DNA of 64,000 bases from Dietzia timorensis (GTDB taxonomy: Bacteria; Actinomycetota; Actinomycetes; Mycobacteriales; Mycobacteriaceae), in NCBI RefSeq assembly GCF_001659785.1, contig NZ_CP015961.1, positions 868,001-932,000 on the forward strand, written 5' to 3'. Below, one piece after another: positions 2,786 to 61,854 of this stretch. The translations under genes and the position numbers were made by a program. Position 1 is the stretch's first letter. Every line of letters begins with the position of its first letter. The notes below the pieces were generated by a model that ran no database searches, was not told the DNA's origin, and saw only the letters and a program-made list of their open reading frames with translations.

Positions 2786-2821
2786 AGGGGCGAAGATCCA
2801 GCTAGTGAGATCTTCGCCCCT
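2786..2821. terminator. Bidirectional terminator between convergent genes
   Basis: Perfect 13-base inverted repeat (2786-2798 and 2809-2821, arm AGGGGCGAAGATC) with a 10-base loop, between the LuxR gene and the convergent adenosyltransferase gene. It directly abuts one copy of the repeated 11-mer at 2821-2831. Confidence 0.8.
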
Positions 2822-2831
2822 CCGCCGTCAT
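2821..2831 (-). repeat. ATGACGGCGGA element, intergenic copy
   Basis: Exact 11-base copy, reverse orientation, flanking the terminator at 2786-2821 and outside coding sequence. Confidence 0.7.
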
Positions 2832-2840
2832 TTCCGGATG

Positions 2841-3422
2841 TTATTCCTTGGTGCGGTTGCCGCCGGGGGACCAGAGAACATCCTCGCCGTCGTTGGCGAC
2901 GCGGCACAGGACGAACAGGAGATCCGAGAGCCGATTGAGATACTTTGCCGGCAGCGCCGAGGTCGTCTCGGGATTCTCGCGCGCCGCGGTCCAGGCGCTG
3001 CGCTCGGCGCGGCGGCACACCGTGCGGGCGAGATGGAGGTGTGCGGCGAGCGGGGTGCCCCCGGCGAGGATGAAGGAATTCAGCGGTTCGAGGGAATCGT
3101 TGTACTCGTCGATCCAACCCTCGATCCTCGTGATGTACTCCGGCGTGATGCGCAACGGCGGGTACTTCGGCTCGGCCTCGACCGGTGTCGACAGGTCCGC
3201 GCCGGCGTCGAAGAGGTCGTTCTGCACGGCGAGGAGACGATCGCGAATCCCCGGATCGGGGTCGCCGGTGGCCACGGCGATGCCGATCGCCGCACCGGTT
3301 TCGTCGCAGTCTGCGTACGCGGTCAGCCGGGCATCGTCCTTGGCCACGCGCTCGAAATTCGACAGTCCGGTCGTGCCGTCGTCGCCGGTACGGGTGTAGA
3401 TGCGTGTCAGATGAACAGCCAT
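2841..3422 (-). CDS. Cob(I)yrinic acid a,c-diamide adenosyltransferase, PduO type
   Basis: A 193-aa PduO-type corrinoid adenosyltransferase, which transfers the adenosyl group of ATP to cob(I)alamin to make coenzyme B12. The N-terminus VHLTRIYTRTGDDGTTGLSN is the family's ATP-binding signature; the C-terminal motif with RRAERS and YLNRLSDLLF is the conserved helix around the active site. Length is typical of the family. The longer open frame upstream to 3932 crosses into murA on the other strand and is a shadow. The gene diverges from murA, the arrangement I recall in M. tuberculosis (Rv1314c-Rv1315). Confidence 0.93.
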   Translation of the reverse strand: MAVHLTRIYTRTGDDGTTGLSNFERVAKDDARLTAYADCDETGAAIGIAVATGDPDPGIRDRLLAVQNDLFDAGADLSTPVEAEPKYPPLRITPEYITRIEGWIDEYNDSLEPLNSFILAGGTPLAAHLHLARTVCRRAERSAWTAARENPETTSALPAKYLNRLSDLLFVLCRVANDGEDVLWSPGGNRTKE

Positions 3423-3469
3423 GTCTAGGACGATACCCGCGCCCGAGATCGCGACGGGGCCACGATTTC

Positions 3470-4909: not shown

Positions 4910-5440
4910 TTTCGTCATTTATGACGCCGGAGGCCCCGCGCACCCTCCGCCCACGAGGCCTTAGCCCCTCTGGGGAGCGGTGATTCCGCGCCCTTCTCCG
5001 AGAACGCGAATATCTGTGTGACCAGGCGATTTGGCTTGTTGTTTGGAAGTGTGTAACTTAGTTGAGGCCGCAAGGGAGCGGGGCGAGATTCCAGAAGGGA
5101 TCGGGTCCTTCTCGCCACACAAACGGGAGCCGACTATTCAGTCCGACTCGCCGACGGAGAAACGGTTTGCGTAACTCCGATCGGATGAGCTAGGCTGGGG
5201 GAGTTGCTTCCGGGAGGTTGCGGCGGCCGGGAATGCGGGTTGGCCAGCGGTTTTGTTGGTTGATTGTGTTTCTGGGTGGTGTTTGAGAACTCAACAGTGT
5301 GTCTATGTAGTGATAGTGCCAAATTATTTTTTTGGTTGTCATCTCCTGTTTTTCCTCGTTTAGCGGGGGGTGACGTTTTTTATACAGGCCAGTTTTGGTT
5401 TGTTTTTTGGTTAGGGTTTGCTCTTTCTATATGGTTTAGA
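4910..5440 (+). promoter_or_regulatory. rRNA operon promoter and leader region
   Basis: This 530-base stretch without a convincing gene drives the rRNA operon. The clearest promoter is TTGCGT (5167-5172) with TAGGCT (5191-5196), spacing 18. A second candidate lies near 5037-5061 (TTGTTG and TAACTT). The leader downstream becomes T-rich and contains TTTGAGAACTCAACAG (from 5282), repeated in similar form in the 16S-23S spacer, and a boxA-like TTTGCTCTTT (from 5417) expected to load the Nus antitermination complex. Short open frames here are not credible genes. Confidence 0.7.
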
Positions 5441-10437
<4,997 letters not shown>

Positions 10438-15546: not shown

Positions 15547-15597
15547 ATGACGGCGGAGCTGCCCTCCCCCGAGGAGGAAGAGCAGCTCCGCCGTCAT
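15547..15597. terminator. Terminator-like hairpin built from two inverted ATGACGGCGGA elements
   Basis: Perfect 15-base arms (15547-15561 and 15583-15597, ATGACGGCGGAGCTG and its complement) enclose a 21-base loop that can itself pair (CCTC/GAGG). It lies between convergent fadB and the glycosyltransferase gene. There is no T run, so it may work as a non-canonical bidirectional terminator. Each arm contains one copy of the element that recurs across the window. Confidence 0.75.
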
Positions 15598-21157: not shown

Positions 21158-22728
21158 TGTCCGACAAACCCATTGATCAGCCTGAGCATGATTCTGTGAA
21201 CGAGCGTGAACTCGAAGAAGGTGAAGAGACCAAGGGACTGGTGAGCAACGGAGCCGCGATGGTGGTTTCCCGACTGCTCACGGCGGTGTTCGGTTGGGCG
21301 GGCAGCGTCGTCATTGCCCGAACTCTTTCCCCAGAGTCCTGGGGGCAGTACTCCTTTGTGTTCGGCCTGTTGGGGATCATGGCAGTCGTTACCGATCTCG
21401 GCGTGGGGAGAGTGGTGATCTCCCGTCTGACCGGAGCGGAGCAGAAGGATTTCGGCCCCGTCGCCGGCTCCTTCATTGTTCTCAGGTGTGTCCTCGGCAT
21501 CGCGGGATATCTCGTGGCCCTGGCGTACTCTCTCATCGTCGGGCTTTCACCGATGGTGGTGATGGTCGTGGCCATCGCTGGTACGACAGTTACGCTTGCC
21601 ACCCCGGCGAACGCGCTTCTCGTCCTTTTTCAGAGCCGACTCAAGCTGGTGTTCTTGGCGACTTGGGACGTCATCGCCCAGATCGTTCAGTTCCTGCTGA
21701 TTCTCCTCGTGATGAAAACCCATCCCACACTTCTGGCCTTCGTCCTGCCGGCAATAGCCAGAGAAGTGGTGACGGTCGGTGTTCGGATAATTGCCATTCG
21801 GACAGGGAAGCTGGACGGACGAGTGCCGACCTACGGAGCGGTGTTCGGCTTGTGGGGACCGATGCTTCGCGAGGCGATACCGATCTCTATCGGCCTCGCG
21901 CTATTGACGATCCTTACCAAGATCGACACATTGATGCTCGAGCGGCTCGACACCTACGAGTCCGTCGGCTTGTATGCGATCGGCTACAAGTTCTCCGACG
22001 TATTGATCCTTGCCGTGTCCGCCTTGGCTGTTCCGTTCACCACGGTGCTGGTCCGAGCGTGGGGGGCCGATACGGACACGTTTCGGCAGCGTACTCGGCA
22101 AGCGATGACGGTGGCCGCGCTACTCGGCGGATTGGCGATCGTGGGTTTCGTCTCCGCCGCCGAGGGGGTCATCGGATTGCTCTATGGAGCGCAGTTCGAA
22201 CCAGCCTCGAATGCGGCACGGTTGTTGGTCATGTCGAGTGCCATTAGCGGCGTGACGACGATCGGCTGGGTGGTTCTCGTTTCCGCGGAGAAGCTCAAGG
22301 TCTTTCCGTGGGTCGCGGGTTTGGGCGTGGTCCTTAATATCGCTCTGAACTCCGTGTTCATCCCCTTGTGGTCGATCATGGGCGCGGCCGGCGCAACGAT
22401 CATTTCTGAACTGGTCATATTCTTCGCGTTCCTTTACATGGCGAGGCAGAGCACGGGGATCACTCGGCTGATCCCCGTGACTCAGCTCGCCCGGCAAGGG
22501 CTCTTGATCGCCGCCGTCACAGCGCCTACCTGGGCACTCATTAACAAGGCCGGATGGCCGTGGATTCCCACCGTCGCTGCGGCATGCGTCCTGCATCTGG
22601 CGTTGTCCGTCGTCAGCAAGTCGTTTGACGTCGGAGATCGGATCAAATTCTTGGCGCCGAAAGAACCCGGCGATATCGATTCACCCGTAGAGGCCACCAC
22701 GAATTCGAGGAGCGCCAATGACGAGTAA
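21157..22728 (+). CDS. Oligosaccharide flippase (Wzx-like, MVF/MOP superfamily)
   Basis: 523 aa with about 12-14 hydrophobic segments starting near residue 30 (GAAMVVSRLLTAVFGWAG) after a charged, Glu-rich N-terminus. The early stretch ARTLSPESWGQYSFVFGLLG is typical of Wzx/polysaccharide exporters, which flip lipid-linked repeat units across the cytoplasmic membrane. Start GTG 21157 overlaps the upstream TAG by one base (TAGTG) with GGAG upstream, so translation is probably coupled. The longer open frame to 21058 overlaps the previous gene and is not needed. Confidence 0.92.
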   Translation: MSDKPIDQPEHDSVNERELEEGEETKGLVSNGAAMVVSRLLTAVFGWAGSVVIARTLSPESWGQYSFVFGLLGIMAVVTDLGVGRVVISRLTGAEQKDFGPVAGSFIVLRCVLGIAGYLVALAYSLIVGLSPMVVMVVAIAGTTVTLATPANALLVLFQSRLKLVFLATWDVIAQIVQFLLILLVMKTHPTLLAFVLPAIAREVVTVGVRIIAIRTGKLDGRVPTYGAVFGLWGPMLREAIPISIGLALLTILTKIDTLMLERLDTYESVGLYAIGYKFSDVLILAVSALAVPFTTVLVRAWGADTDTFRQRTRQAMTVAALLGGLAIVGFVSAAEGVIGLLYGAQFEPASNAARLLVMSSAISGVTTIGWVVLVSAEKLKVFPWVAGLGVVLNIALNSVFIPLWSIMGAAGATIISELVIFFAFLYMARQSTGITRLIPVTQLARQGLLIAAVTAPTWALINKAGWPWIPTVAAACVLHLALSVVSKSFDVGDRIKFLAPKEPGDIDSPVEATTNSRSANDE

Positions 22729-26228: not shown

Positions 26229-26402
26229 AACGGCGCCCCGAATTGCAGAATTAGTGGCCTCGGTCGACTGCCTTACATGGTCTGAAGTGGACGGTCGGAG
26301 GATCGGCGGCCTGCTGAAAATATCAGCATCTCGCACTCTATCAATCGAACTGCCACAGGCAGTGCGTAACTTGAGACCTGGGGTCTACACGCCCCGCTTT
26401 GG

Positions 26403-27524: not shown

Positions 27525-27581
27525 TGTTTGTCCTTTGGCGAGTTCTCGGTGCAGGCCTGGGCGGGATCGGAGAATGGAAGG

Positions 27582-28739: not shown

Positions 28740-28970
28740 TGCAATGAATCCTTCCGCCGTCAATTGGCAAGGGGTGTCAGGAACAAGGATGCACGCCAGC
28801 GTTCTAGGGGTACTGGGGGCGCGGTGTGAACATACCCAGTTCCAGTAAGAGGCTGGTGTCCGAAACTCCGAGTTTATAACATCACAAGGGCTCGCCGTTA
28901 ATGTAGAACCGCGTTTGATGGCAGGTCGACGAGGTGAACGCGCTGTTGCTTCGGCACGCGAGATCGATGT

Positions 28971-41757: not shown

Positions 41758-44079
41758 GTGACTCGCGCCACTTTCCGTAGGTTCGGAATCGCCCACGCCG
41801 CGCTCGCCGCGGCGCTCATCGTCGTGGGCGGCGGCCTCGCCGCGCCCGCCTACGCGCAGTCGGCGGGTTCCCTGCAGGCGCCCGGGGGATCGGTGTTCCC
41901 GAACGCCTCGGGCTCTCTCGGTTCGTTGGGTATCCAGCAGGACCAGTTGTCCGGGCTGGGTTCGGGCGAGATCGCCATTGCCGACGGCGCCCGCGGCGAG
42001 TATCCGCTCGGCGAATACACCCTCTCCGTGAGCGATGAGCGCGTCGCCGTCAACGCTGCCGGCCGCACCGTGTGGGCGGGCACCACCGGCTACTCCTTCC
42101 TCATGGCCGGCGCCGGCACCGTGGATTGGGCCGAACACCGCGGCTACTTCTGGCCCGCCACCCGCCACGGGGAAAGCTGGAACTCCCAGCGCGTGGACCG
42201 TATCGACAATGACGGCGGAGGTCTCACCCTCACCGGCACCCTGGGTTCGCCGGGCTCGGAGCGGGAATATTCCGCGAGCTTCGCCCCTCGCCCCGGCGGC
42301 GGGATCTCGGTCGACGTGTCCGTTCCGGGCGCCGACACGGTGCAGTGGGTGAGCGAGAAGAGCCAGGGCGCCGGGGTCCACGGCTTCGGCGAGCAGTTCA
42401 CGGACTTCGACCTCTCCGGTCGGCTCATCCCCATCGTCGCCCGGGAACAGGGCGTCGGCCGCGGCGCCCAGCCGCTCACGCTGCTCGCAGACCTCACCAA
42501 CGGCGGCGCCGGCGGCACCGAGTCGATGACGTACGCCGCGTGGCCGACCTTCGTCACCGGCGATATGCGCGGCGTCCGCCTCGACCCGGCCGCGAAAAGC
42601 AGCTACTCCTTCGCCGTCGGCGACACCCGTGCCGCCGATCGCGTCGGACTCGAGGTGTGGTCTCCGGACATCCGGCTCGAGCTCACGTCCGGGGACTCGC
42701 CGAAGGAGCTCATCGCGCAGCAACAGTCCGGCGTCACCCGGCCGCCGCTCGCGGGGTGGACGCAGTCCGGCGCCATCGTCGGTATCCAGGGCGGCACCGA
42801 CAGGGTCCGCCGCGTGGTCGACGACCTCGAGGCGGCCGGCACGCCCGTCGCCGGCGTGTGGCTGCAGGATTGGACGGGGCAGCGCACCACCGACTTCGGC
42901 GACCGCCTGTGGTGGACGTGGCAGCTCGACCAGGCACGCTACCCCGGCTGGTCCGGGCTCGTCTCCGAACTCCGCGACCGCGGCATCCGTACCACGACCT
43001 ACGTGAACCCCTTCCTCGTCGATGCCGCGCCCAAGGGCGACCCGTCCATCCGGAACCTCTGGCAGGAGGCGTCTGACGCCGGACTCCTAGTTCGCAACAC
43101 CGAAGGCGCGCCCTACATGCTGGACCAGGGAGGATTCAGTGCCTCGCTCGTGGATCTCACCGATCCCGCCGGGAGGGCGTTCATGTCCGACGTCATTGCC
43201 GACGAGGTTCTGGCGGGCGGGGTCGACGGCTTCATGGCAGACTTCGCCGAAGGCTTGCCGATGGATGCGGTGGTGCATGACGGCGATGCGGCCGAGTTGC
43301 ATAACCGGTGGCCGCAGCTGTGGTCGCAAACGGTGCGCGAGGGTTGCGAGAAGGCGGGGCGCCCGGATTGCGTGACGTGGTTCCGCGCCGGCACATTCGG
43401 CATGGATTCGCAGTCGCCGGCGTTCTGGAACGGGGATCAAACGGTCGACTGGTCGAGGGAGGACGGGCTCGCGTCAGCGTTGCTCGGGACGTACTCGGCG
43501 GGCGTGTCCGGGTGGCCGGTCGTGCACTCGGACATCGGCGGCTATATATCTGTAGATGCCATCGTGCACCAATTCGTGCGCGACGAGGAACTGCTCGCGC
43601 GCTGGGGCGAGTACGCGGCGTTCGGGCCGATGTTTCGGACGCACGAGGGCAACCGGCCCGCGGCCAACCGGCAGGTGTACGACGAGGGGGAGCGGGTGGC
43701 GTTCGCCCGCAACGCCCGGATCTTCGCCGCGCTGGCCCCGTACCGCGAGGGAGTTCTCGCCGAGGCCGCGCGCACGGGCGTGCCGGCTGTGCGGCATCCG
43801 TGGATCGAGTTTCCCGGTACCGAGGTCGCGCGGAGCGAGACACAGTTCATGTTGGGCGAGGCGATCATGGTCGCGCCGGTGCTCGAACGCGGGCGCGAAT
43901 CGGTCGAGGTCGTGTTCCCGCCGGGGCGGTGGAAACACCTGGTGACTGGCGAGGTGTTCGAGGGTGAAACACGCGCGACCGTGGCGGCGCCTATCGGGCA
44001 GCCGGCGGCGTTTATCGACGCCGACGACCCGCGCGCCGAGGAGATCGGCCAGGCCGTCGCCGCGGCGGCGCGCGGCTGA
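41758..44079 (+). CDS. Exported GH31 alpha-glycosidase, probable sulfoquinovosidase
   Basis: 773 aa. A Sec signal peptide (GIAHAALAAALIVVGGG, cleavage after AYA near residue 34) precedes an N-terminal beta-sandwich and a GH31 barrel. Nucleophile Asp495 is in GFMADFAEGLP and acid/base Asp560 in WNGDQTVDW, then HSDIGGY. Gln370, Arg383 and Trp386 (VWLQDW ... GDRLWW) match in spacing the sulfonate-binding Gln288, Arg301 and Trp304 of E. coli YihQ, pointing to hydrolysis of sulfoquinovosyl glycerides rather than glucans. Unlike YihQ it is exported. GTG 41758 is taken as start; the frame opens at 41701. Confidence 0.86.
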   Translation: MTRATFRRFGIAHAALAAALIVVGGGLAAPAYAQSAGSLQAPGGSVFPNASGSLGSLGIQQDQLSGLGSGEIAIADGARGEYPLGEYTLSVSDERVAVNAAGRTVWAGTTGYSFLMAGAGTVDWAEHRGYFWPATRHGESWNSQRVDRIDNDGGGLTLTGTLGSPGSEREYSASFAPRPGGGISVDVSVPGADTVQWVSEKSQGAGVHGFGEQFTDFDLSGRLIPIVAREQGVGRGAQPLTLLADLTNGGAGGTESMTYAAWPTFVTGDMRGVRLDPAAKSSYSFAVGDTRAADRVGLEVWSPDIRLELTSGDSPKELIAQQQSGVTRPPLAGWTQSGAIVGIQGGTDRVRRVVDDLEAAGTPVAGVWLQDWTGQRTTDFGDRLWWTWQLDQARYPGWSGLVSELRDRGIRTTTYVNPFLVDAAPKGDPSIRNLWQEASDAGLLVRNTEGAPYMLDQGGFSASLVDLTDPAGRAFMSDVIADEVLAGGVDGFMADFAEGLPMDAVVHDGDAAELHNRWPQLWSQTVREGCEKAGRPDCVTWFRAGTFGMDSQSPAFWNGDQTVDWSREDGLASALLGTYSAGVSGWPVVHSDIGGYISVDAIVHQFVRDEELLARWGEYAAFGPMFRTHEGNRPAANRQVYDEGERVAFARNARIFAALAPYREGVLAEAARTGVPAVRHPWIEFPGTEVARSETQFMLGEAIMVAPVLERGRESVEVVFPPGRWKHLVTGEVFEGETRATVAAPIGQPAAFIDADDPRAEEIGQAVAAAARG
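42209..42219 (+). repeat. ATGACGGCGGA element in GH31 gene
   Basis: Exact 11-base copy; reading frame gives Asn-Asp-Gly-Gly. Confidence 0.65.
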
Positions 44080-44509: not shown

Positions 44510-46180
44510 CTACTCGCCGATCTGGGGCAGCTCCGGGCCGAGCACGTCGTCGGCGTCGATGATCCGGTAGGCGTAGCCCTGTTCGGTGAGGAAGCGCTGG
44601 CGGTGCTGGGCGTAGTCGGCGTCGAGGGTGTCGCGCGAGACCACCGAGTAGAAGTGCGCCTGCCCGCCGTCGTGCTTCGGGCGCAGCAGGCGGCCGAGGC
44701 GCTGGGCCTCTTCCTGCCGCGAACCGAACGTCCCCGACACCTGGATGGCCACGGACGCCTCGGGCAGGTCGATGGAGAAGTTCGCGACCTTCGACACCAC
44801 GAGGCACGAGATCTCGCCCTCACGGAACTGCTCGAACAGCTTCTCGCGCTCCTTATTGGGCGTCGAGCCCTGGATGACGGGAACGTCGAGGGTCTCGCCG
44901 AGTTCGTCGAGCTGGTCAAGGTACGCGCCGATCACCAACGTCGGGGCGCCCGCGTGCTGCTCGATGAGCTTGCGGACCACCGGGATCTTCGTCTTCGCCG
45001 TCGCGCAGATCTTGTAGCGCTCGTCCGGCTCGGCGGTCGCGTAGATCATCCGCTCGTTCTCGGTGAGCGTGACCCGGACCTCCACGCAGTCGGCCGGCGC
45101 GATCCAGCCCTGGGCCTCGATGTCCTTCCACGGGGCGTCGTAGCGCTTGGGCCCGATGAGCGAGAACACGTCGCCCTCCCGGCCATCCTCCCGGACAAGA
45201 GTGGCGGTGAGCCCCAGCCGCCGGCGGGACTGGAGGTCCGCCGTCATACGGAAAACCGGGGCGGGAAGCAGGTGGACCTCGTCGTAGATGACCAGGCCCC
45301 AGTCGCGGGAATCGAACAGGTCCAGGGCCCGGTAGACGCCCTTGGTCTTGCGGGTGATGACCTGGTAGGTGGCGATGGTGACCGGGCGGATCTCTTTCTT
45401 CTCGCCCGAGTACTCGCCGATCTCGTCCTCTGTGAGCGAAGTGCGGCGCACGAGCTCGCGCTTCCACTGGCGCCCCGAGACGGTGTTGGTGACGAGGATG
45501 AGCGTGGTCGCCTTGGCCTTGGCCATCGCGGCGGCGCCGACCATCGTCTTGCCCGCGCCGCAGGGGAGGACCACGACGCCGGAGCCGCCCGACCAGAACG
45601 ACTCGGCCGCCATCTCCTGGTAGTCGCGCAGCGCCCACTTCTCTTCTTCTGTAGAGAGGTCGATGGGGTGGGCTTCGCCGTCGACGTAGCCGGCGAGATC
45701 CTCGGCGGGCCAGCCGACCTTGAGCAGCTCTTGCTTGAGGTGGCCGCGCTCGGAGCCGTGGACGATGACCGTGTCGTCGTCGATCTGTTCACCGAGCATG
45801 GGCGCGATCTTCTTGTGCCGTTTGATCTCGGCGAGCACGGCCTTGTCGAAGGAGACGAGCACGAGGCCGTGCGCCGGGTTCTTCACCAACTGCAGGCGCC
45901 CGTAGCGCGCCATCGTCTCGGCGACATCGACGAGCAGCGGCTGCGGCACAGGGAAGCGCGCGTACTGCACGAGCACGTCGACGACCTGCTCGGCATCGTG
46001 TCCCGCGGCGCGCGCGTTCCACAGCGCGAGCGGGGTGATCCGATAGGTGTGCACGTGCTCGGGCGCGCGCTCGAGCTCCGCGAACGGGGCGAGCGCGCCG
46101 CGCGCCTCCGCGGACTGGGGATGGTCGATCTCCAGCAGCACGGTCTTGTCCGATTGGACGATGAGGGGTCCGCCGCTCAC
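44510..46180 (-). CDS. XPB/Ssl2-type DNA repair helicase
   Basis: 556 aa SF2 helicase of the bacterial XPB group. An N-terminal XPB-specific domain (SDKTVLLEID, damage recognition-like) precedes helicase domain 1 with Walker A LPCGAGKTMVG (about 205-215) and the DEVH box IYDEVHLLPAP, then domain 2 with VIQGSTPNKERE and QEEAQRLGRLLRP. Mycobacterial XPB is a 3'-5' DNA helicase linked to repair. Start GTG 46180 follows AAAGGACC; the longer frame to 46318 overlaps the neighbour. It lies beside the large partner gene, as in M. tuberculosis Rv0861c-Rv0862c. Confidence 0.94.
   Translation of the reverse strand: MSGGPLIVQSDKTVLLEIDHPQSAEARGALAPFAELERAPEHVHTYRITPLALWNARAAGHDAEQVVDVLVQYARFPVPQPLLVDVAETMARYGRLQLVKNPAHGLVLVSFDKAVLAEIKRHKKIAPMLGEQIDDDTVIVHGSERGHLKQELLKVGWPAEDLAGYVDGEAHPIDLSTEEEKWALRDYQEMAAESFWSGGSGVVVLPCGAGKTMVGAAAMAKAKATTLILVTNTVSGRQWKRELVRRTSLTEDEIGEYSGEKKEIRPVTIATYQVITRKTKGVYRALDLFDSRDWGLVIYDEVHLLPAPVFRMTADLQSRRRLGLTATLVREDGREGDVFSLIGPKRYDAPWKDIEAQGWIAPADCVEVRVTLTENERMIYATAEPDERYKICATAKTKIPVVRKLIEQHAGAPTLVIGAYLDQLDELGETLDVPVIQGSTPNKEREKLFEQFREGEISCLVVSKVANFSIDLPEASVAIQVSGTFGSRQEEAQRLGRLLRPKHDGGQAHFYSVVSRDTLDADYAQHRQRFLTEQGYAYRIIDADDVLGPELPQIGE
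45237..45247 (-). repeat. ATGACGGCGGA element in XPB gene
   Basis: Exact copy in reverse orientation; encodes Met-Thr-Ala-Asp within RMTADL. Confidence 0.65.
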
Positions 46181-46220: not shown

Positions 46221-48614
46221 TCACGGCGCTGGGGCCACGGAGATGATCCGTGACAAAGAATATTCGCGGTGTTCGTCGGTGAGCGGGTCGATCCCGCTGA
46301 CCCGGCCGGCCGCCACACGCAGCGGCAACAGCATGCCCGAGGAGGTGCGCCCGGCGGCGTCGACCACCGCGATCGCCACCGGCGTGGCCGCAGCGGCCGC
46401 GTCGTGCAACATCGTGACCGCCGCGACGCCGGTCTTGCGGCCGCTCCCGCCGCGCGCCCCCGCGACGCCCGCGGCCTGCTCCGCCGAGCGCATCCCGGCC
46501 ACAGCCGTGCGTGCGGACTGCGGGTTCACCCCGATCCACGCCGCGAGCCTACGCGCATCGCCCGGGTCCTCCGCGCGATCAGGGGTGATGCGGGCGCGCT
46601 GGCGCACGAGATCGACGATCTGCCCGCTGGTGTCCTCGGCGACCGGCGAGTACCCGGCCTGGCGAAGCTGCGTGAGCACGTGGTTCGGCCGGGCGTGCGC
46701 AATGAGCACGGTCGGCGCGATCTGCCGGATCCCGAGCTCGGACGCCAACGGCCCCTGGCCGAGCTCGGCCACCAGCGCCTGGTCATCCGAACGCAGGAAT
46801 GACGTCGCACTTCCCACCCGCAGGGTGCCGTGCCGGCGCGCGACATCGGCGATCAAGTATTCGACGGACTGCGGCACCGGCGTGATCGACGCCGCGCGCA
46901 GCGTCGCGAGAATGCCGTCCGCCGTGCGGCCGGTGTCGAGGGCGCGGCGCAGCGAGGCATCGGTGAGCCGGTACGTCGTCGCGGCGCCCGTGGATTCGAC
47001 CTCCCCGATCGCGCCGACCTCGGCGCCGAGCTCCGCGGTGAGAGGCCCCGGGGCGAGGATCGTGTTATCGGCCTGCACGATAATCTCGGACACCGGCTCC
47101 GGCACGATCTGCGCGAGCGTGGTCGCGAGCGCGTCGACGAGGCCGGCGCCATCGCGGGCGGCCTCCCCGTCGCTTTCGCCGCGGTCTGCCGCGGCCGAGA
47201 ATTCGTGCGCCGCGCGGCCTGCGGCCGTGAGCCCCCACCCGGCGACGAGCCCGAACAGCCGCGCCTGGTCCACGATCTCGCGGATGTGCGGCATGCCGCG
47301 GCCACCGACGAGAGCCGGGCGCAGCCAGCGCACGAGCTCGGGGAAATCCTCTGCGGTGCTATCGCGGTCCTCGGGCAGCTGGGCGAGCGCGGCGAGCGCG
47401 TCCTTGCGGGTTTCGAGCACGCTCGGCCGCCACCGCTCCTCGGCGCGGATCGCGAGGACGGGCACGTCGATATGGGTCTTGCCCGGTTGGTCCGCGCCCG
47501 GCTCGGGCTGCCAGGGCGCGACCGGCATGCGCCACCAGGCCGCGGCGAGCGCGGCGACGCGGCGCGGGAGCTCGGCCTCGCTCCAGGCGTCCGCCGCAGG
47601 GGTCGGCGCCCACGAATCGGAGAACGGCTCCTCGGCGACCTCCCCGTCTCCGGGAAAGATGAGCCCGGCGGCGTACAGCGTCTCGAGCACAACGACGGTG
47701 GCGCCGAGCTCGGTGTCCGCAGCGGCAGCGAGACGGCGCAGTTCGCGGATCCCGACGCCACCGCCGCGCAGCTGCGACAGTGGGCTCTGGCCGAGGAGGT
47801 CGAGGATACGAGTGGCGAGGTGGTCGAGCTCGATCGCCGCCACCCCAGCGCTGCCGTCGCGGCGGCCCACGCCCATTGCGGGTCCTGGCCACGGCGGCGG
47901 GGCGAGAATATCGGCGCCGTCGGTGTCGTACCGCAGCTGATACACCGCCGCGGCGACAGGGTAGAGAAGGGTGCCATCGTGGCCGAGCCGGGCGATTCCC
48001 GCCGCCACGGCTGCGTCGATGACCTCGCGCGTCGCCGCCGGCACGCGCGCCGAGAACTCCCCGCGGCACGCGGTACCGCGCGCCAGGCGGGCGAGCAGCG
48101 CCCGCGAGCGGTCGTCCGCGGCGAGCGCGCGACTCACCGCCGCCGGGGTCGGATCCCCGTCCTGCGGGAGCACGATCTGCGCGCGGGCCGCGAAATCGCC
48201 GACGTCCGCCGTCATACGAAGACTGTCGTCCGAGCCCCACAGCAGGCCGCGCTCGCGTAGGCGATCGATCGCGGCGGTGACACGCTGCTTCGACCCCGCC
48301 GGGCGGCGGCTGCCGGCATGGGGGAGCGCGGCATCGATGTCCTTCGCCGCGACGGGCCCGGCGAGCGCGCCGGCGGTCTCCGCTGCGAGCAGGACGGTCG
48401 CGGTCGGCAGGTCGAGCCGGTTAGCCTCGCGCCTGGCGGTCTGGGGCAGCCCGAGCCGCGCGGCGAGAACCTCGAAGGATGACGGCGGAGGCGCCGTGAC
48501 ATCGGGCCGGGCGCGGAGCAGGGCGTGGAGGAAGTCGTCCTCTGCCGCCGCCAGCCACGCCGCGAGGTCGTTCGCGGCCGCTGGGCGATGAGTTCGACGT
48601 GGCACTTTATCCAC
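46221..48614 (-). CDS. Helicase-associated protein (XPB N-terminal-like/helicase C-terminal domain)
   Basis: About 797 aa, Ala/Arg-rich. The family (helicase-associated, sometimes annotated 'helicase C-terminal domain-containing') is always beside XPB in this order. I see no Walker A box, so it is probably not an active helicase; winged-helix-like repeats (AAIELDHLATRILDLLGQ; HEFSAAADRGESDGEAA) and an XPB-like C-terminal domain (VGSATSFLRSDDQALVAELG) suggest a DNA-binding partner. Start choice is uncertain: GTG 48614 or GTG 48605 (GGATAAA upstream); the open frame to 48770 is too long. It ends about 40 bases before the XPB start. Confidence 0.82.
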   Translation of the reverse strand: MDKVPRRTHRPAAANDLAAWLAAAEDDFLHALLRARPDVTAPPPSSFEVLAARLGLPQTARREANRLDLPTATVLLAAETAGALAGPVAAKDIDAALPHAGSRRPAGSKQRVTAAIDRLRERGLLWGSDDSLRMTADVGDFAARAQIVLPQDGDPTPAAVSRALAADDRSRALLARLARGTACRGEFSARVPAATREVIDAAVAAGIARLGHDGTLLYPVAAAVYQLRYDTDGADILAPPPWPGPAMGVGRRDGSAGVAAIELDHLATRILDLLGQSPLSQLRGGGVGIRELRRLAAAADTELGATVVVLETLYAAGLIFPGDGEVAEEPFSDSWAPTPAADAWSEAELPRRVAALAAAWWRMPVAPWQPEPGADQPGKTHIDVPVLAIRAEERWRPSVLETRKDALAALAQLPEDRDSTAEDFPELVRWLRPALVGGRGMPHIREIVDQARLFGLVAGWGLTAAGRAAHEFSAAADRGESDGEAARDGAGLVDALATTLAQIVPEPVSEIIVQADNTILAPGPLTAELGAEVGAIGEVESTGAATTYRLTDASLRRALDTGRTADGILATLRAASITPVPQSVEYLIADVARRHGTLRVGSATSFLRSDDQALVAELGQGPLASELGIRQIAPTVLIAHARPNHVLTQLRQAGYSPVAEDTSGQIVDLVRQRARITPDRAEDPGDARRLAAWIGVNPQSARTAVAGMRSAEQAAGVAGARGGSGRKTGVAAVTMLHDAAAAATPVAIAVVDAAGRTSSGMLLPLRVAAGRVSGIDPLTDEHREYSLSRIISVAPAP
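48205..48215 (-). repeat. ATGACGGCGGA element in the helicase-associated gene
   Basis: Exact copy; encodes Met-Thr-Ala-Asp in RMTADV. Confidence 0.65.
48479..48489 (+). repeat. ATGACGGCGGA element in the helicase-associated gene, opposite orientation
   Basis: Exact copy on the other strand relative to the gene; the gene reads it as Pro-Pro-Ser. It lies 264 bases from the previous copy. Confidence 0.65.
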
Positions 48615-51747: not shown

Positions 51748-53265
51748 CTACGACGATTCCGGGGCGGGGCGCCGCGGCCGGTTGCCCCCGACCCACGGGA
51801 CGAGCGACGTGCCCTTGCGGGTGAGCACCGCCTGGGTGACCATGAGCGCGCTGAGCACCGCGAGCACGGTGAACCCGATGGTGAAGTCGGTGGGAAGCAG
51901 CACGCCGAGCGCGCCGCCGAGGACCCAGGACATCTGGAGCGCGGTCTCCGAGCGGCCGAACGCCGAGGAGCGCCCACGGTCCGGGATGTCGGTCTGGATC
52001 GACGCGTCGAGGGCCACCTTGCCCAGGGCGCTGGCAAGCGCGGCGACGAGCGCCAGCACGACCGCCGCCTCGACGTTTCCGAGGAACGCGGCGACGATCG
52101 TGGCCGCGGTAGCGGCGACGCCCGCCGTCATCGTGATGCGTGTCGAGTGCCCGAGCGGGATGCGCGCGCCGAGCGCGTTGCCGGCGAATGTGCCGATGCC
52201 CGCGGCTGCGCCCGCGGCGCCGAGCATTGCGACCTGTTCGGTGGCGGCGGCGTCCTCGGTCGATTTGGCGACGAAGGCGACGTAGAGGGTCATGAACCCG
52301 GTGAGCATGCGCACCGAGGATTCGGCCCACAGGTTCGCGATGACATCGCGGCCGAGCGGGCGGGTGAGGACACGCCGCATCTGCGCGAACCCGGCGCGCG
52401 CCGCCGTGCGAATGGGCGTCGTGGGCGCGGACGCGGCGGCCACTGTGTTGTCCTCGCCGGCTCCGCCGTCATGCCCGAAATAGGCGAAGGACGCCGATTC
52501 GTCCCCCTCGTGAAACTCGGCGGACGGCGGGATCGTCATGCACAGGTACGCCCCGACGAGCGCGGCGATCGCGAGCAACCACAGCACCTCGCGCGAGTCG
52601 AACAGGTAGGCCACGCCCGCGGCGATCCCGCCGGCGACGAGCGAACCGAACACGTGCCCGAGAATCGTGAGCCGGGAATTCGTGCGCACGAGGTCGAGCT
52701 GCGGCGGCACGAGATACGGCGTACACGAGGCGCGCACCACCCCGTACGTCTTGGACAGCACGAGCATCCCCAGCGCGCACGGATACAGCAAGAGCGAATG
52801 GAAGTTGAGCGCGAGGATCACCGCGAGCACGGCCCGCAGGGTGAAGGTGAGCGACAGGGTGAAGCGCCTGCCCCGGCGAAGCCGGTCGAGCGCCGGACCG
52901 ATAATCGGCGCGATGACGGCGAACGGCGCGACCGTCATGAGGAGATAGAGCGCGACGTTCGTCCGCGATTCGGCGGTCGCCGCCGAAAAGAACAGGGTGT
53001 TCGCGAGCGCCACCGCGAGCATCGCGTCGATCGAGAAGTTCGCGACCGTCGTGTACGACAGCTGCGCCAAGCCCGATTCGCGCGCGCCCTCCGCGTGGAA
53101 CATGCGCCGCGGAAGGTCGATGACGCGCCCGAACACCGTGAGGCGTTGGCGCGGGCCGGTCGACCCGGCGCCGCGGGGAGCGGAGCCGGGGGACTGGCCG
53201 GGGGCGGAACCGTGGGCCGAACCCGAACGTGCGCGCCCCCGGAAGGGAGGTCGCGACCGGGTCAC
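51748..53265 (-). CDS. MFS-type membrane transporter
   Basis: 505 aa with about 12 hydrophobic segments after a long Pro/Arg-rich N-terminus. The first helix area GLAQLSYTTVANFSIDAMLAVALANTLFF and the later VTAGVAATAATIVAAFLG read like the actinobacterial MFS family of Rv0876c. Substrate unknown. Its GTG start at 53265 overlaps the TGA of the upstream lipoprotein gene (GTGA), so they are translationally coupled. Charged loops such as DRLRRGRR fit MFS motif A positions. Confidence 0.85.
   Translation of the reverse strand: MTRSRPPFRGRARSGSAHGSAPGQSPGSAPRGAGSTGPRQRLTVFGRVIDLPRRMFHAEGARESGLAQLSYTTVANFSIDAMLAVALANTLFFSAATAESRTNVALYLLMTVAPFAVIAPIIGPALDRLRRGRRFTLSLTFTLRAVLAVILALNFHSLLLYPCALGMLVLSKTYGVVRASCTPYLVPPQLDLVRTNSRLTILGHVFGSLVAGGIAAGVAYLFDSREVLWLLAIAALVGAYLCMTIPPSAEFHEGDESASFAYFGHDGGAGEDNTVAAASAPTTPIRTAARAGFAQMRRVLTRPLGRDVIANLWAESSVRMLTGFMTLYVAFVAKSTEDAAATEQVAMLGAAGAAAGIGTFAGNALGARIPLGHSTRITMTAGVAATAATIVAAFLGNVEAAVVLALVAALASALGKVALDASIQTDIPDRGRSSAFGRSETALQMSWVLGGALGVLLPTDFTIGFTVLAVLSALMVTQAVLTRKGTSLVPWVGGNRPRRPAPESS
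52121..52131 (-). repeat. ATGACGGCGG element in MFS gene (11th base differs)
   Basis: Core 10-mer exact, followed by G; encodes Met-Thr-Ala-Gly. Confidence 0.5.
52462..52472 (-). repeat. ATGACGGCGGA element in MFS gene
   Basis: Exact copy; encodes His-Asp-Gly-Gly, a frame different from the neighbouring copy. Confidence 0.65.
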
Positions 53266-55188: not shown

Positions 55189-55223
55189 CTCCGGCGTCAT
55201 ACCCGGGCGTGGCCTTCTAGCCG

Positions 55224-57063: not shown

Positions 57064-57912
57064 GTGCGCGTTATCGACATCGGCGACCCCGCCGACTCCC
57101 GCCTCGACCCGTTTCGCGATCTCAACGTCGCCGACCGTCGTCCCGATGCCGGTGACTCGGGGCTCGTCATCGCCGAGGGGCTGTACGTCGTCGGCAGGAT
57201 GCTCGTCTCACCGCTGTCCACGATGGCGCTCGCCGGCACCGAGGCGAAGCTCGGCCGACTCCGCGAGGACCTCGCCGCCGAGGGGCATTCGCTCGACGCG
57301 CTGGCGGGGGACGCGCCGTTCTACCGCGTCTCGAATGAGGTGCTCTCCGCCGTCATCGGCTTTGCTTCTTCCCGGGACGTGCTCGCCGTCGCCCCACGCC
57401 CCACGCCGCGTATGACGTCGGACGTACTTGGCCCGGCCAGGACGCTGATGGTGCTCGAGGGCGTCAACAATGCGGAGAACCTCGGCGCCATGTTCCGCGG
57501 GGCCGCGGCGTTCGGCGCCGACGGGATCCTCATGGGCGCCGCGACCGCGGACCCCTGGTATCGGCGGACCGTGCGCGTGTCCATGGGCCACGTGATGAAC
57601 GTGCCGTGGGCAAACCTCGGTGGCACGCCGACGACCTGGCAGCGCGGACTCACGGAGCTCCACGACGCCGGGTTCTCGACCATCGCGTTGACGCCTTCCG
57701 CGGACGCCACGCTCGCCGAGGCGATGGCCCGGGTGGGCGCGGCCGGCGGCGCCGGCAGGGTGGCGCTGCTCGTGGGCGCCGAGGGGCCCGGGCTCACCGA
57801 GCACGCGATGCGCGCGGCAACCCTGCGCGCAAGGATTCCGATGGCCGCCGGCGTCGACTCGCTCAACGTCGCCACCGCCGCGCAGATCGCGCTCTACGAG
57901 CGATTTCGCTGA
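57064..57912 (+). CDS. SpoU-family RNA 2'-O-methyltransferase
   Basis: 282 aa TrmH/SpoU (SPOUT) enzyme. An N-terminal substrate domain is followed by the knot: motif 1 VLEGVNNAENLGAMFRGAAAFG in two parts, motif 2 LLVGAEGPGL and motif 3 IPMAAGVDSLNVATAAQIAL, which form the SAM site. It methylates ribose in rRNA or tRNA (M. tuberculosis Rv0881 relative). GTG 57064 is the start. Co-transcribed with the permease. Confidence 0.92.
   Translation: MRVIDIGDPADSRLDPFRDLNVADRRPDAGDSGLVIAEGLYVVGRMLVSPLSTMALAGTEAKLGRLREDLAAEGHSLDALAGDAPFYRVSNEVLSAVIGFASSRDVLAVAPRPTPRMTSDVLGPARTLMVLEGVNNAENLGAMFRGAAAFGADGILMGAATADPWYRRTVRVSMGHVMNVPWANLGGTPTTWQRGLTELHDAGFSTIALTPSADATLAEAMARVGAAGGAGRVALLVGAEGPGLTEHAMRAATLRARIPMAAGVDSLNVATAAQIALYERFR
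57346..57356 (-). repeat. ATGACGGCGGA element in SpoU gene
   Basis: Exact copy; the gene reads it as Ser-Ala-Val-Ile on the forward strand. Confidence 0.65.
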
Positions 57913-58964: not shown

Positions 58965-59498
58965 TCACCGCGTGCTGAAGGGGTCGGTATCGATCCAATA
59001 CCTGTGCTTGAGAAGTCCATCGCCACCGCGGCGAACATCCTCGAACACGCCGCCACAGGCACGTATGACGGCGCACGACGCCGAATTACCGTCGTTGTGG
59101 ATCACCAATGCCTTTGATACTCCCGCCGCCGCAAGTCGCTCGAGCGACTGCCGCAACATCTCGGTGGCGTAGCCGCGCCCGCGGAATTCGGGACCCACGG
59201 CGTAGCCGACGTGCCCGCCCTCATGGTGGAGGAACGCGTTGAGCTCGTAGCGAATCGACACCCGCCCGACCGGGACACCGCAGGCGACGGCGACCAGATA
59301 GTCCGCGCGCACTCTGCCCGCAGGAAGATCAGTGCCCTCCGCTTCGCGTCGAATGGCGGAGAGATTCTCGTCCCAGGTGCCTTCGAAGAGGAGGAAATGG
59401 AACCCCTCGGGCGCGAGCTGTTCGTGTAGCGCGCGCATTGCCTGCTCGTCGCGGGGTTCGGGTGGGCGAAGTCGGAGTTCTGGAGCGATCGAAGCCAT
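58965..59498 (-). CDS. GNAT-family N-acetyltransferase
   Basis: 177 aa single GNAT domain: LRLRPPEPRDEQAMRAL at the start, VGRVSIRYELN, and the acetyl-CoA loop VGPEFRGRGYATEML, followed by the last strand ASCAVIRACGG. Acceptor unknown. ATG 59498 is favoured since the frame upstream to 59567 overlaps the neighbour. It follows the DUF6928 gene by 13 bases on the same strand. Confidence 0.86.
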   Translation of the reverse strand: MASIAPELRLRPPEPRDEQAMRALHEQLAPEGFHFLLFEGTWDENLSAIRREAEGTDLPAGRVRADYLVAVACGVPVGRVSIRYELNAFLHHEGGHVGYAVGPEFRGRGYATEMLRQSLERLAAAGVSKALVIHNDGNSASCAVIRACGGVFEDVRRGGDGLLKHRYWIDTDPFSTR

Positions 59499-59511
59499 GC
59501 GGGGTGCCTGG

Positions 59512-60402
59512 CTACTTGCGGCGCTTGGAGATTTCGTCGCGCGCCAAACGCGCGAACTTCCTCGCACCTCGGGCCGCCATCGAGCCTGCCTCGCGCGCCT
59601 TCTCGGCGGCTGCGCGCGCGGATTCGCGCACCGGCTGTTCCTTCGCGCTCACTGCACGCTCGTAGTCGTCGTGTTCGTACGGGGAGGCGGCGTCATCATC
59701 CGGCGTGGAAGCAGCGACTTCCTCGGCGATCTCTGCGTGCCCGGCCTCCGCGGACAGGTGCATGGCCCGGCCGGCCGGGGGATGCTCGGCGCGAACCTCG
59801 CGGCGCCCGTCCGTGGCATAGCCGAGGACGGGAACGTCGAGCCCATCGGGGCTCAGTTCGAAGCCGAGCCACGCCTCGTGGGCCGCGCTGAGAAGTTCGG
59901 CAGGGGAGAACGGGAGCGCGAGTGGATCGTCCACGCCGTCCTGCGGACGTTCGCCGGACCAGAAAGGAAGCTCGAATCCGGCGGGCATCCCCTCGTCCTC
60001 GACGATGCGGTTCGCGGCGGCGGAGAAGGAGCGCTGCAGCTTCCCGTCCTCCCAGTGCGCGAACGCGCTCACCTCGCTCTCGGCGTCGAACGCGAAGGAG
60101 TAGACGTTCGGCGCGCCGGCGATTGCGATCCATTTGTCCTCGATCTGCGAGGGGCGCAGCGCATCGGACTCACTCGTCTGGATGACCGTGAGCCCGGGGA
60201 ACGAGCCGATGTAGATCTCTCCCTCGCCTGCGGAGGCGGAGCGGTTGAGCGGGAACTCGCCGATGTGACTGATCGTCGCCTTCGGATACAGCTTGCTCAA
60301 TAGGCGGCGCGGGTACCCGGGATCGGCGGGTAGCCCGGTGGTGAAGGCCTGGGCCGGCGACTCTGTCGCCACGTGCCAAAAGGTTGTCACGTGGTGTGAC
60401 AT
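59512..60402 (-). CDS. DUF6928-like protein, function unknown
   Basis: 296 aa. Recognised as the DUF6928 type from IYIGSFPGLTVIQ, FAHWEDGKLQRSFS and ELPFWSGERP with LPFSPAEL, all typical of actinobacterial proteins of unknown role. The C-terminal 80 residues are charged and Ala-rich with a coiled-coil look (AAAEKAREAGSMAARGARKF). ATG 60402 has GAGAGG upstream. It forms a short unit with the GNAT gene downstream and lies after sepH. Confidence 0.72.
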   Translation of the reverse strand: MSHHVTTFWHVATESPAQAFTTGLPADPGYPRRLLSKLYPKATISHIGEFPLNRSASAGEGEIYIGSFPGLTVIQTSESDALRPSQIEDKWIAIAGAPNVYSFAFDAESEVSAFAHWEDGKLQRSFSAAANRIVEDEGMPAGFELPFWSGERPQDGVDDPLALPFSPAELLSAAHEAWLGFELSPDGLDVPVLGYATDGRREVRAEHPPAGRAMHLSAEAGHAEIAEEVAASTPDDDAASPYEHDDYERAVSAKEQPVRESARAAAEKAREAGSMAARGARKFARLARDEISKRRK

Positions 60403-60459
60403 GGGCGTGTTACCTCTCGGTCGGTTGGGCCCAGTCGTCGCGGCCCGATGACGGCGTGG

Positions 60460-61854
60460 TTACTTACTGTCCTTGGGGGAGCGAACCCCGAGGAGTACAT
60501 CTTCCCAGGAAGGCATTGTCGGATGCTTGCCTTTGGCTCGGTGCGCGCCACCCTCGGTGGGCGGATGCATGAGGAAATCGTCGTCCTGGTTCTCGTGGCC
60601 GTTCGCGCCGCTGCTCTCTGTCGGTCGCTGGTCGGCCGGACGCTGCTGCTCGGTGGAAGGCCGACCGTTGCGTGGCTCAGGTGTGGTCTGCGGCGCCACA
60701 AGGCCCTGGGCGAATGGATTGCCCGACATCGTTCCCGCGCGGTCGCCGGCGCGCTCGTTTGCCCTATTGCCTGGCCGTTCCCCGGAGGGCGCGCCGGCGC
60801 CGGAAGGCTGCGCGGCGTCGGCGCCGGGGCGGCCCGCGTTCGGGTCGAGCTCGATCGGCCGACCCAAGACGTAGGGCGTTGCTTGGCTCGACGGGTCATG
60901 CGGGACCCGTCGCCCGCCGATGCCCGTGACACTCGCGGGAAAGGACCGTGGCCACGCCCTGCCACCGTCGGCCTCGAAACCGGCGTCCGGCTCATCGGCG
61001 ATGCCAAGAGGCTTGCGCAGCTCGGGATCGCCGATTGCGACGGCCTCATCGTCCATCGGGTGGGCGACGCCGCCGTGAGAATCCGGGACGAATTCCCACA
61101 GGGCCGAGGCGTCGTCGGACAGGCCCGCCGGCCATTTCGCCTGCACGGTCCAATTCCCGGATTTGAGTCGCCAGGAGTCCCAGCGCAGCAGTTCGGGGTC
61201 GACCCCGCGCTCTTCCAGCGAGTCGATGACCATCGTCTCGACGGTGTCCACGGACGGCCCATCTGCAAGCAGCGGGTGCGCCTTCCGCGCGCGCTCGGCC
61301 CTCGCGCCGCGCTCCTGGAGGATCGGATACGCAAAGGCCTCTACACGTGTAAAGGACATGCCGGTGAGTTCGCAGAGTTCTTCTACTGTGGCGCCGGCAC
61401 GCACGCGAGCCTGTAGGTCTTTCGGCCGCAGCGAATTGCGCTCGGGCGTGAAGCGCGCGGAGGGGCGCTTGCCGCCGGGATCGGGGCGAGAGGATGTGGC
61501 GGCGAGAGTGTCGGCATCTCCGCCGTCATTGGCGGGGGTTGTTTTCGACGAGGTGCCGACGAGGCTCGGCTCGGGGCCGTGCGGCAGCGTCGAGGGTTCC
61601 GTCGACTTCTTTGCCGCGGAGGAGGTTTCGCCGGACGCTTCGCCTTCGCTCTCGTCTTCGGCGGTGCTGCCGACGGAATCTGCCGCGGAGGATTCGGCCG
61701 ACTCGTTTGACGCTGAATCGTCGCCGAAACGTCCGCGCGCGGCGGCTCGGAACGTGTCATCGAGGGGGAGGGCGAGTTTCTCGCCCGTATCCGCGATTTC
61801 GCATTCGACGGTCTCGGACTCCGTATCGACCCCGACGATCGCGATTTTTCGCAT
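60460..61854 (-). CDS. sepH: Septation protein SepH (DUF3071)
   Basis: 464 aa. The N-terminal DUF3071 domain starts MRKIAIVGVDTESETVECE and includes an HTH (VRAGATVEELCELTGMSFTRVEAF in two parts); it is split from a conserved C-terminal motif by long acidic and Gly/Pro-rich linkers. In Streptomyces and mycobacteria SepH binds FtsZ and promotes Z-ring assembly. ATG 61854 has AGGAGGAG. The neighbouring order sepH-serC matches M. tuberculosis Rv0883c-Rv0884c. Confidence 0.92.
   Translation of the reverse strand: MRKIAIVGVDTESETVECEIADTGEKLALPLDDTFRAAARGRFGDDSASNESAESSAADSVGSTAEDESEGEASGETSSAAKKSTEPSTLPHGPEPSLVGTSSKTTPANDGGDADTLAATSSRPDPGGKRPSARFTPERNSLRPKDLQARVRAGATVEELCELTGMSFTRVEAFAYPILQERGARAERARKAHPLLADGPSVDTVETMVIDSLEERGVDPELLRWDSWRLKSGNWTVQAKWPAGLSDDASALWEFVPDSHGGVAHPMDDEAVAIGDPELRKPLGIADEPDAGFEADGGRAWPRSFPASVTGIGGRRVPHDPSSQATPYVLGRPIELDPNAGRPGADAAQPSGAGAPSGERPGNRANERAGDRAGTMSGNPFAQGLVAPQTTPEPRNGRPSTEQQRPADQRPTESSGANGHENQDDDFLMHPPTEGGAHRAKGKHPTMPSWEDVLLGVRSPKDSK
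61519..61529 (-). repeat. ATGACGGCGGA element in sepH
   Basis: Exact copy in the low-complexity linker code; encodes Asn-Asp-Gly-Gly. Confidence 0.65.

What the first reader, a model, noticed from the sequence alone, without database searches (positions are those of the whole stretch)
2821..61529. Over-represented polar 11-mer ATGACGGCGGA, in coding and non-coding DNA
Seen directly: the core ATGACGGCGG (or complement) occurs 13 times, at 2822-2831, 15547-15556, 15588-15597, 33010-33019, 33038-33047, 42209-42218, 45238-45247, 48206-48215, 48479-48488, 52122-52131, 52463-52472, 57347-57356 and 61520-61529. Eleven of these extend to ATGACGGCGGA and eight to ATGACGGCGGAG. By base composition alone, well under one is expected. 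Coding copies are read in different frames (Met-Thr-Ala, Asp-Gly-Gly, Ser-Ala-Val-Ile, Pro-Pro-Ser), so no protein motif explains them; three copies are intergenic. Such frame-independent repetition is the hallmark of a DNA-level signal: DNA uptake sequences (Neisseria, Pasteurellaceae), Chi sites or KOPS. Orientation is skewed (9 versus 4).
Basis: partly seen in the sequence, partly recalled or inferred. Interest (0 to 1): 0.82.

Follow-up and report, generated by a model that had tools for sequence, protein, structure and literature searches.

The report
Uptake-signal-like DNA word in an actinobacterium
This bacterial chromosome carries about a thousand copies of one short DNA word, a build-up seen in none of the relatives checked and laid out much like the signals some bacteria use to recognise DNA of their own kind; if it works that way it would be an unexpected case in this group.

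Summary
The window holds 13 ATGACGGCGG (0.51 expected). The real word is degenerate: (T)ATGACGNCGGA, N = T>G>C>A, with a weak consensus from about -12 to +26. The 3.61-Mb genome has 1034 TGACGNCGGA (488/546 by strand; reversed word 25) and 516 ATGACGKCGGA. None of 687 other actinobacterial genomes exceeds 34; each of 22 congeners has 4-14. Coding copies are 7 times the synonymous-codon expectation, on both gene strands.

KOPS and Chi are refuted: leading/lagging 194/213, while a control word is polar. Mobile repeats are unsupported: 0 of 45 ungapped ortholog pairs (26 sites) keep the word and flanks are unrelated. Amino-acid identity is about 52% at motif codons, about 69% elsewhere in the same genes.

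Best reading (0.5): a DNA-uptake-type self-recognition word, arisen in one deep lineage. Against it: no relative tested shares it, no uptake was measured, mismatched copies exceed perfect ones when all positions count, and the Tad pilus ATPase gene is split by an island. Chief rival: a lineage-specific DNA-binding protein.

The parts
2821..2831 (-). ATGACGGCGGA, intergenic, beside a strong hairpin after a gene end
4922..4931 (+). TGACGNCGGA copy
15547..15557 (+). ATGACGGCGGA, left arm of an inverted pair between convergent genes
15587..15597 (-). ATGACGGCGGA, right arm of the same inverted pair (hairpin)
22606..22615 (-). TGACGNCGGA copy
22626..22635 (+). TGACGNCGGA copy
28454..28463 (+). TGACGNCGGA copy
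28753..28762 (-). TGACGNCGGA copy
33010..33019 (+). ATGACGGCGG (followed by T), left arm of an inverted pair
33037..33047 (-). ATGACGGCGGA, right arm of the same inverted pair
38940..38949 (-). TGACGNCGGA copy
42209..42219 (+). ATGACGGCGGA, coding
42727..42736 (-). TGACGNCGGA copy
43074..43083 (+). TGACGNCGGA copy
43186..43195 (-). TGACGNCGGA copy
45237..45247 (-). ATGACGGCGGA, coding
48205..48215 (-). ATGACGGCGGA, coding
48479..48489 (+). ATGACGGCGGA, coding
52122..52131 (-). ATGACGGCGG (followed by G), coding
52462..52472 (-). ATGACGGCGGA, coding
55190..55199 (-). TGACGNCGGA copy
57346..57356 (-). ATGACGGCGGA, coding
57413..57422 (+). TGACGNCGGA copy
61519..61529 (-). ATGACGGCGGA, coding

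Best explanation
The word is an uptake-sequence-like self-recognition signal. A DNA receptor of a competence apparatus in this one lineage would prefer DNA containing the word (t)ATGACGNCGGA plus about 38 bp of weak context. Homologous recombination of preferentially taken-up fragments would then replace non-word alleles, so that over a long branch about a thousand copies accumulated by point substitution, in both orientations, wherever proteins or intergenic DNA tolerated them. Shown here: the word, its degeneracy and flanks, its count, its lack of polarity, its origin by substitution in the aligned genes, the lower protein conservation at motif codons, its restriction to this genome among those searched, and the presence of comEA-like, comEC and tad genes. 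Inferred: that a receptor binds it, that uptake is biased, and that recombination drives it. I say 'works like USS/DUS'; I do not file it as a proven member.
For: Genome-wide abundance: 1034 TGACGNCGGA, reversed word 25. Coding copies 259 against a mean of 37 in 20 synonymous-codon shuffles; three control words 0.96, 0.98 and 1.34 times. No strand or replichore bias. Intergenic density 1.7 times coding. Strict inner core: at seven inner positions single mismatches are at background (130 seen, 138 expected) while perfect ATGACGNCGGA is 274 against 11. Weak extended flanks, similar in intergenic sites and three coding-frame classes. Substitution, not insertion: 45 ungapped ortholog pairs from 26 sites, the word kept in 0 of 45. 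Amino-acid identity .515 and .527 at motif codons.644 and .663 within 15 codons.696 and .692 in the rest of the same genes. Unrelated flanks among 312 sites. Similar traits are described for USS/DUS in PMC1626085 (passages and section 7) and PMC2397512 (passages). ComEA-like and ComEC genes are present. In the actinobacterium Micrococcus luteus, Flp/Tad pili are needed for transformation (PMC4322843, passages). A mobile island splits tadA here; mobile elements that disrupt competence genes are documented in PMC4774983 (passages).
Against: No uptake or binding was measured. All 22 congeners and 665 other actinobacterial genomes lack the enrichment, whereas known USS/DUS are shared by at least some genus or family members (PMC1626085). 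When every fixed position is counted, singly mismatched copies exceed perfect ones (487 to 274 for ATGACGNCGGA; 1006 to 407 for TGACGNCGGA), unlike the USS/DUS hallmark; the excess over background sits at the outer positions. The only T2SSE match over the family cut-off in this genome belongs to the split tadA (a third match, below cut-off, is shared with many congeners), and no N_methyl pilin was found (0 of 23). The 15.5-kb, 52% GC island inside tadA carries 3 copies (4.4 expected at the average density), so recently acquired DNA is not clearly word-free. Spacing is close to random, not more regular. Convergent pairs of the 8-mer TGACGNCG (34 at up to 100 bp) do not exceed divergent ones (50).
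Confidence: 0.5

Rival explanations
1. Binding sites of a lineage-specific chromosome-organising or regulatory DNA-binding protein (nucleoid protein, condensin loader or similar), selected site by site.
For: Strict 8-bp core TGACGNCG with about 38 bp of weak flanks and soft outer positions fits a protein footprint; near-uniform spread; intergenic copies cluster just after stop codons (49 of 75 site-to-stop distances within 60 bp against 26% expected).
Against: 307 of 407 sampled copies lie inside genes and protein conservation is lower there, costly for ordinary binding sites. Single mismatches at the inner positions are at background. No orientation pattern along the chromosome. No enrichment in 22 congeners.
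Confidence: 0.25
2. A self-marking word that protects the chromosome from a resident defence nuclease (functionally Chi-like or PAM-like, but without orientation).
For: Lineage restriction and dense, non-polar spread would fit; methylase-like genes and an AAA gene with weak matches to restriction-enzyme models sit in the tadA island.
Against: No nuclease was linked to the word; known Chi words are polar (recalled), this one is not. Restriction sites are usually avoided, not amplified (recalled).
Confidence: 0.08
3. KOPS or Chi-type polar chromosome word.
For: Short G-rich asymmetric word; window skew 9:4.
Against: Leading/lagging 194/213, p=0.37, and p 0.17-0.37 for four terminus positions; 68/81 and 102/90 by half, while the control GGGNAGGG is 67/29 and 33/55.
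Confidence: 0.01
4. Dispersed mobile repeat (MITE/REP-like) whose core is all that remains recognisable.
For: Several inverted pairs form hairpins; 16 of 39 nucleotide alignments and 12 of 57 ortholog pairs had gaps at the site.
Against: 45 of 57 ortholog pairs align through the site without a gap; 307 of 407 copies are inside genes; no two of 312 sites share 50 of 90 flank positions.
Confidence: 0.04
5. Composition or codon-usage artefact.
For: GC-rich genome; GCC/GGC-rich codons.
Against: Synonymous shuffles 7-fold lower; order-4 Markov expectation 30-fold lower for ATGACGBCGGA; no other actinobacterial genome searched shares it.
Confidence: 0.01

Closest known systems
USS of Pasteurellaceae (core AAGTGCGGT or ACAAGCGGT)
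   Same: Non-palindromic short core, weak flanking segments, both orientations, coding plus intergenic with intergenic excess, arises by substitution (PMC1626085, passages and section 7).
   Different: Unrelated sequence; an actinobacterium; one of 23 genomes of its genus; lower density (about 0.29/kb against close to one per kb); near-random spacing; perfect copies exceed single mismatches only if the inner positions alone are counted; no uptake data.
DUS of Neisseriaceae (AT-DUS and its dialects)
   Same: 10-12-mer with about a thousand copies or more, some close inverted pairs, lineage-specific forms (PMC2397512, PMC3630211, passages).
   Different: The DUS-binding protein is ComP, a type IV minor pilin (abstract of PMC4906244); no N_methyl pilin found here. 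The DUS core CTG is not in this word. Dialects there follow clades; here no relative tested shares the word.
Natural transformation by Flp/Tad pili in Micrococcus luteus
   Same: Actinobacterium with comEA, comEC and tad genes (PMC4322843, passages).
   Different: A term search of that paper found no 'uptake sequence'; here tadA is interrupted.
KOPS and Chi
   Same: Short over-represented asymmetric words across the chromosome (recalled).
   Different: They are polar with replication (recalled); this word is not.

Membership tests
Uptake sequences (USS/DUS) | Preferential uptake or transformation of DNA bearing the word | not testable with these tools
   Needs bench uptake assays.
Uptake sequences (USS/DUS) | Hundreds to thousands of copies of a 9-12-mer, far over expectation | tested here: met
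   1034 TGACGNCGGA, reversed word 25; the listed top words at k=8-12 are versions or parts of it.
Uptake sequences (USS/DUS) | No orientation bias along the chromosome | tested here: met
   488/546; leading/lagging 194/213.
Uptake sequences (USS/DUS) | Many coding copies, with excess in non-coding DNA | tested here: met
   0.240/kb coding, 0.416/kb intergenic.
Uptake sequences (USS/DUS) | Perfect copies outnumber singly mismatched copies | tested here: inconclusive
   Seven inner positions only: 260 perfect (N = C, G, T) against 97. All fixed positions: 274 against 487 (241 of these expected by chance), or 407 against 1006 for the 10-mer.
Uptake sequences (USS/DUS) | Arises by substitution, not insertion | tested here: met
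   45 ungapped and 12 gapped ortholog pairs, word kept in 0 of 45; two congeners, 26 distinct ungapped sites.
Uptake sequences (USS) | Weak flanking consensus next to the core | tested here: met
   About -12 to +26, in intergenic sites and the three coding-frame classes with at least 25 sites.
Uptake sequences (USS/DUS) | Shared by at least some members of the genus or family | tested here: not met
   0 of 22 congeners, 0 of 400 family members incl. those; a closer sister species may not be held.
Uptake sequences (DUS) | Absent from recently acquired genes | tested here: inconclusive
   Density rises with GC, but the tadA island has 3 copies in 15.5 kb and the window's low-GC region 7 in 27.7 kb.
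Uptake sequences (DUS) | Frequent close inverted pairs acting as terminators | tested here: inconclusive
   Several hairpin pairs, but convergent pairs do not exceed divergent ones.
Uptake sequences (USS/DUS) | Functional competence machinery in the genome | tested here: inconclusive
   comEA-like, comEC and tad genes present, tadA split by an island.
KOPS | Polarity towards the terminus in each replichore | tested here: not met
Chi | Orientation with the leading strand | tested here: not met
MITE/REP repeats | Copies share sequence beyond the core and appear as insertions | tested here: not met
   gapped alignments, the minority, are given.

The most novel reading that the evidence does not exclude
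An independent origin of DNA uptake specificity in a mycolate actinobacterium, read by a Tad/Flp-pilus and ComEA/ComEC uptake system, confined to one deep lineage of its genus and now, in this strain, silenced by a mobile island that split the pilus motor gene.
Probability: 0.42. Interest if true: 0.92.

Novelty: new variant of a known kind. Interest (0 to 1): 0.8.

Why it matters
The uptake words met in the papers seen here belong to Neisseriaceae and Pasteurellaceae. That no others are established is recalled; searches returned nothing, and the rows listed by searches (15 of 26; 12 of 1,835) named none in Actinobacteria. A natural case in an actinobacterium with 22 congeners that lack the enrichment would make it testable, within one genus, whether such words spread by receptor bias and drive or by benefit. 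It would also give a specific handle on natural transformation in the group that includes the mycobacteria. Even if the function is different, an accumulation of about a thousand copies of a strict word in one lineage, at places where protein sequence has changed, needs an explanation.

Tried and rejected
Replichore polarity: the listing suggested that all copies from 1.02 to 2.92 Mb were forward. Sampled stretches showed this to be an artefact of how the list is truncated; whole counts are balanced. An early note records the wrong idea and a later one corrects it.

Dialects in congeners: k-mer scans of G016 and G009 (200 kb each), G002 (60, then 350 kb), G017 (60, then 120 kb), G013 and G020 (60 kb each) listed GACGAC-type runs and words of much weaker excess. 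A related word hinted at in G002 at 60 kb (7 copies against 0.4) was not among the listed top words at 350 kb.

Insertion origin: not supported. Shared flanks: none. Intragenic position by orientation: no difference (p=0.36). Regular spacing: none.

Perfect against mismatched copies: my first count took only the seven positions that one search had shown to be strict. The full count, made when checking this report, goes the other way; I lowered the main odds from 0.55 to 0.5, raised the chief rival from 0.22 to 0.25 and lowered the novel case from 0.45 to 0.42 for that reason.

Species identity: no call names the organism. Size, single contig and GC agree with my memory of Dietzia timorensis; a paper on its complete genome was seen only as a title in a reference list. 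The 80 FtsK relatives kept are mostly Corynebacterium, Rhodococcus, Gordonia, Mycolicibacterium, Mycobacterium, Amycolatopsis and similar; one MAG is titled Bifidobacterium; none is Dietzia, but near relatives may be left out by that tool.
Full report
What was checked. The 13 ATGACGGCGG of the finding exist at the stated places, 4 forward and 9 reverse, against 0.51 expected; 11 extend by A and 8 by AG. The window is bases 868001-932000 of a single-contig genome of 3,607,892 bases, G000. The whole genome has 174 ATGACGGCGGAG (89/85; reversed word 0), 516 ATGACGKCGGA (246/270; reversed 0) and 1034 TGACGNCGGA (488/546; reversed 25).

What the word is. I sampled 60 stretches of 20 kb plus the window (1.264 Mb), later 1.444 Mb in all, 40% of the genome. 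In the 1.264 Mb, with an order-4 Markov background, the seven top 10-, 11- and 12-mers listed are all versions of one word: TGACGTCGGA 122 against 5.7 expected, TGACGGCGGA 147 against 9.6, TATGACGTCGGA 38 against 0.12. Changing one position at a time gives a strict core TGACGNCG, N = T>G>C>A, with a soft A (and T) before it and soft G, A after it. In 1.444 Mb perfect ATGACGNCGGA is 274 against 11 expected; single mismatches are 487 against 241, the excess being at the three outer positions, while at the seven inner positions they are 130 against 138. Around 312 sites a weak consensus runs from about -12 to +26: AT-rich -12 to -6, C -5, purine -4, then S +11, G +12, C +16, G +17, A/T +18, C around +20 to +23, G +26. 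Far-flank z-scores there have a standard deviation of 2.2, so single positions with small deviations mean little. The consensus is similar in intergenic sites (77) and in the three coding-frame classes with at least 25 sites (44, 72, 59), so it is not a codon effect.

More than chance, and not codons. In predicted genes (own caller; 1163 genes, 86% coding) TGACG[GTC]CGGA occurs 259 times against a mean of 37 in 20 synonymous-codon shuffles; three control words gave 0.96, 0.98 and 1.34 times. Both gene strands carry it (148/111; shuffles 21/16) and it is read in all frames except the one that would give an in-frame TGA. Intergenic density is 1.7 times coding density.

Not polar. GC skew changes sign at about 1.8-1.95 Mb. 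With 1.8 Mb as boundary, copies are 68/81 in the first and 102/90 in the second part, while GGGNAGGG, used as a polar control, is 67/29 and 33/55. On all 407 sampled copies leading/lagging is 194/213, p=0.37, and p is 0.17-0.37 for boundaries from 1.80 to 1.95 Mb. This refutes KOPS and Chi.

Only here. ATGACGKCGGA is 4-14 in each of 22 congeners, 0-34 in the 400 other genomes of the family search, which include those congeners (31 genera), and 0-29 in the 295 other genomes of the phylum search; 687 different genomes in all, against 516 in G000. Six congeners show no comparable word of their own in the 60-350 kb sampled. G000 is a deep branch: over 108 genes median amino-acid identity is 66-67% to two congeners, which are 88% identical to each other. 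The tool holds about half of GTDB species, so a closer sister that shares the word may exist.

How copies arise. In 1.80-2.06 Mb, orthologs in G016 and G009 could be aligned for 45 site-ortholog pairs without gaps (26 distinct sites) and 12 with gaps. None of the 45 keeps the word; 6.4 of 10 bases agree on average. In a plain nucleotide alignment 16 of 39 pairs had a gap, mostly in poorly conserved stretches. Amino-acid identity at motif codons is 51/99 (G009) and 49/93 (G016), within 15 codons .644 and .663, in the rest of the same genes .696 and .692. So copies come mainly by substitution, at places where the protein has changed; whether the word caused the change or settled in tolerant places is open. 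No two of 312 sites share 50 of 90 flanking bases, so they are not recent copies of an element.

Where they sit. Counts per 20 kb (63 pieces) have mean 5.4 and variance 6.6, and gaps are near exponential. Density rises with GC even against a composition expectation. For 71 copies in gaps of at least 30 bp between genes, 49 of 75 site-to-stop distances are within 60 bp (26% expected), and 35 of these 49 are antisense to the gene. Several inverted pairs form hairpins, including 15547/15588 and 33010/33038 of the window, but convergent pairs are not more common than divergent ones.

Machinery. comEC is found in 18 of 23 genomes including G000. In G000 a protein with SLBB and HHH domains, as in ComEA, precedes it. 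No N_methyl pilin was found in any of 23. A tad locus with a split pilus ATPase, two T2SSF genes, a small DUF4244 gene and a PF13400 gene matches the loci of five congeners, in which the two ATPase parts lie side by side. In G000 the ATPase gene is split at its ATP-binding loop by about 15.5 kb (52% GC) with a Phage_integrase-family gene, two methylase-like genes and an AAA gene. A stronger second T2SSE match (E below 1e-70) seen in 12 congeners has no counterpart in G000.

Interpretation. [quoted passage not shown] The word here matches orientation, coding and non-coding spread, flanks and origin; it differs in density (0.29/kb), spacing and sharing, and matches the strong-consensus trait only at its inner positions. 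PMC4322843 (passages) shows that Flp/Tad pili are needed for transformation of an actinobacterium; PMC4774983 (passages) documents mobile elements that break competence genes. I therefore hold an uptake-type recognition word as the likeliest reading (0.5), a lineage-specific DNA-binding protein as the chief rival (0.25), and leave the rest to other causes. The absence from relatives, the split tadA, and the three copies inside the island in tadA are the main points against; the last would fit an island that has long resided in this lineage, but that is a guess.

Noticed in passing
G000:C1:582918-598400 (L229:2918-18400): An integrase-bearing island of about 15.5 kb, 52% GC, with methylase-like and AAA genes splits the tad pilus ATPase gene at its ATP-binding loop; in five congeners the two parts lie side by side. 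It carries 3 copies of the word.
   Followed up: partly
window 15610-31206: Low-GC stretch with sugar transferase, glycosyltransferase, polysaccharide synthesis, deacetylase, Wzy_C and acyltransferase genes: probably a surface polysaccharide cluster (10 proteins scanned).
   Followed up: partly
G000:C1:1333057-1335194: comEA-like (SLBB+HHH) and comEC genes side by side, at 49-53% and 39-41% identity to five congeners.
   Followed up: partly
G000 genome: The strongest T2SSE match (E below 1e-70) found in 12 congeners has no counterpart in G000, so this lineage may have only one tad locus.
   Followed up: no
congeners G002, G009, G013, G016, G017, G020: Runs of GACGAC/GTCGTC are among the most over-represented long words in the sampled congener DNA.
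   Followed up: no
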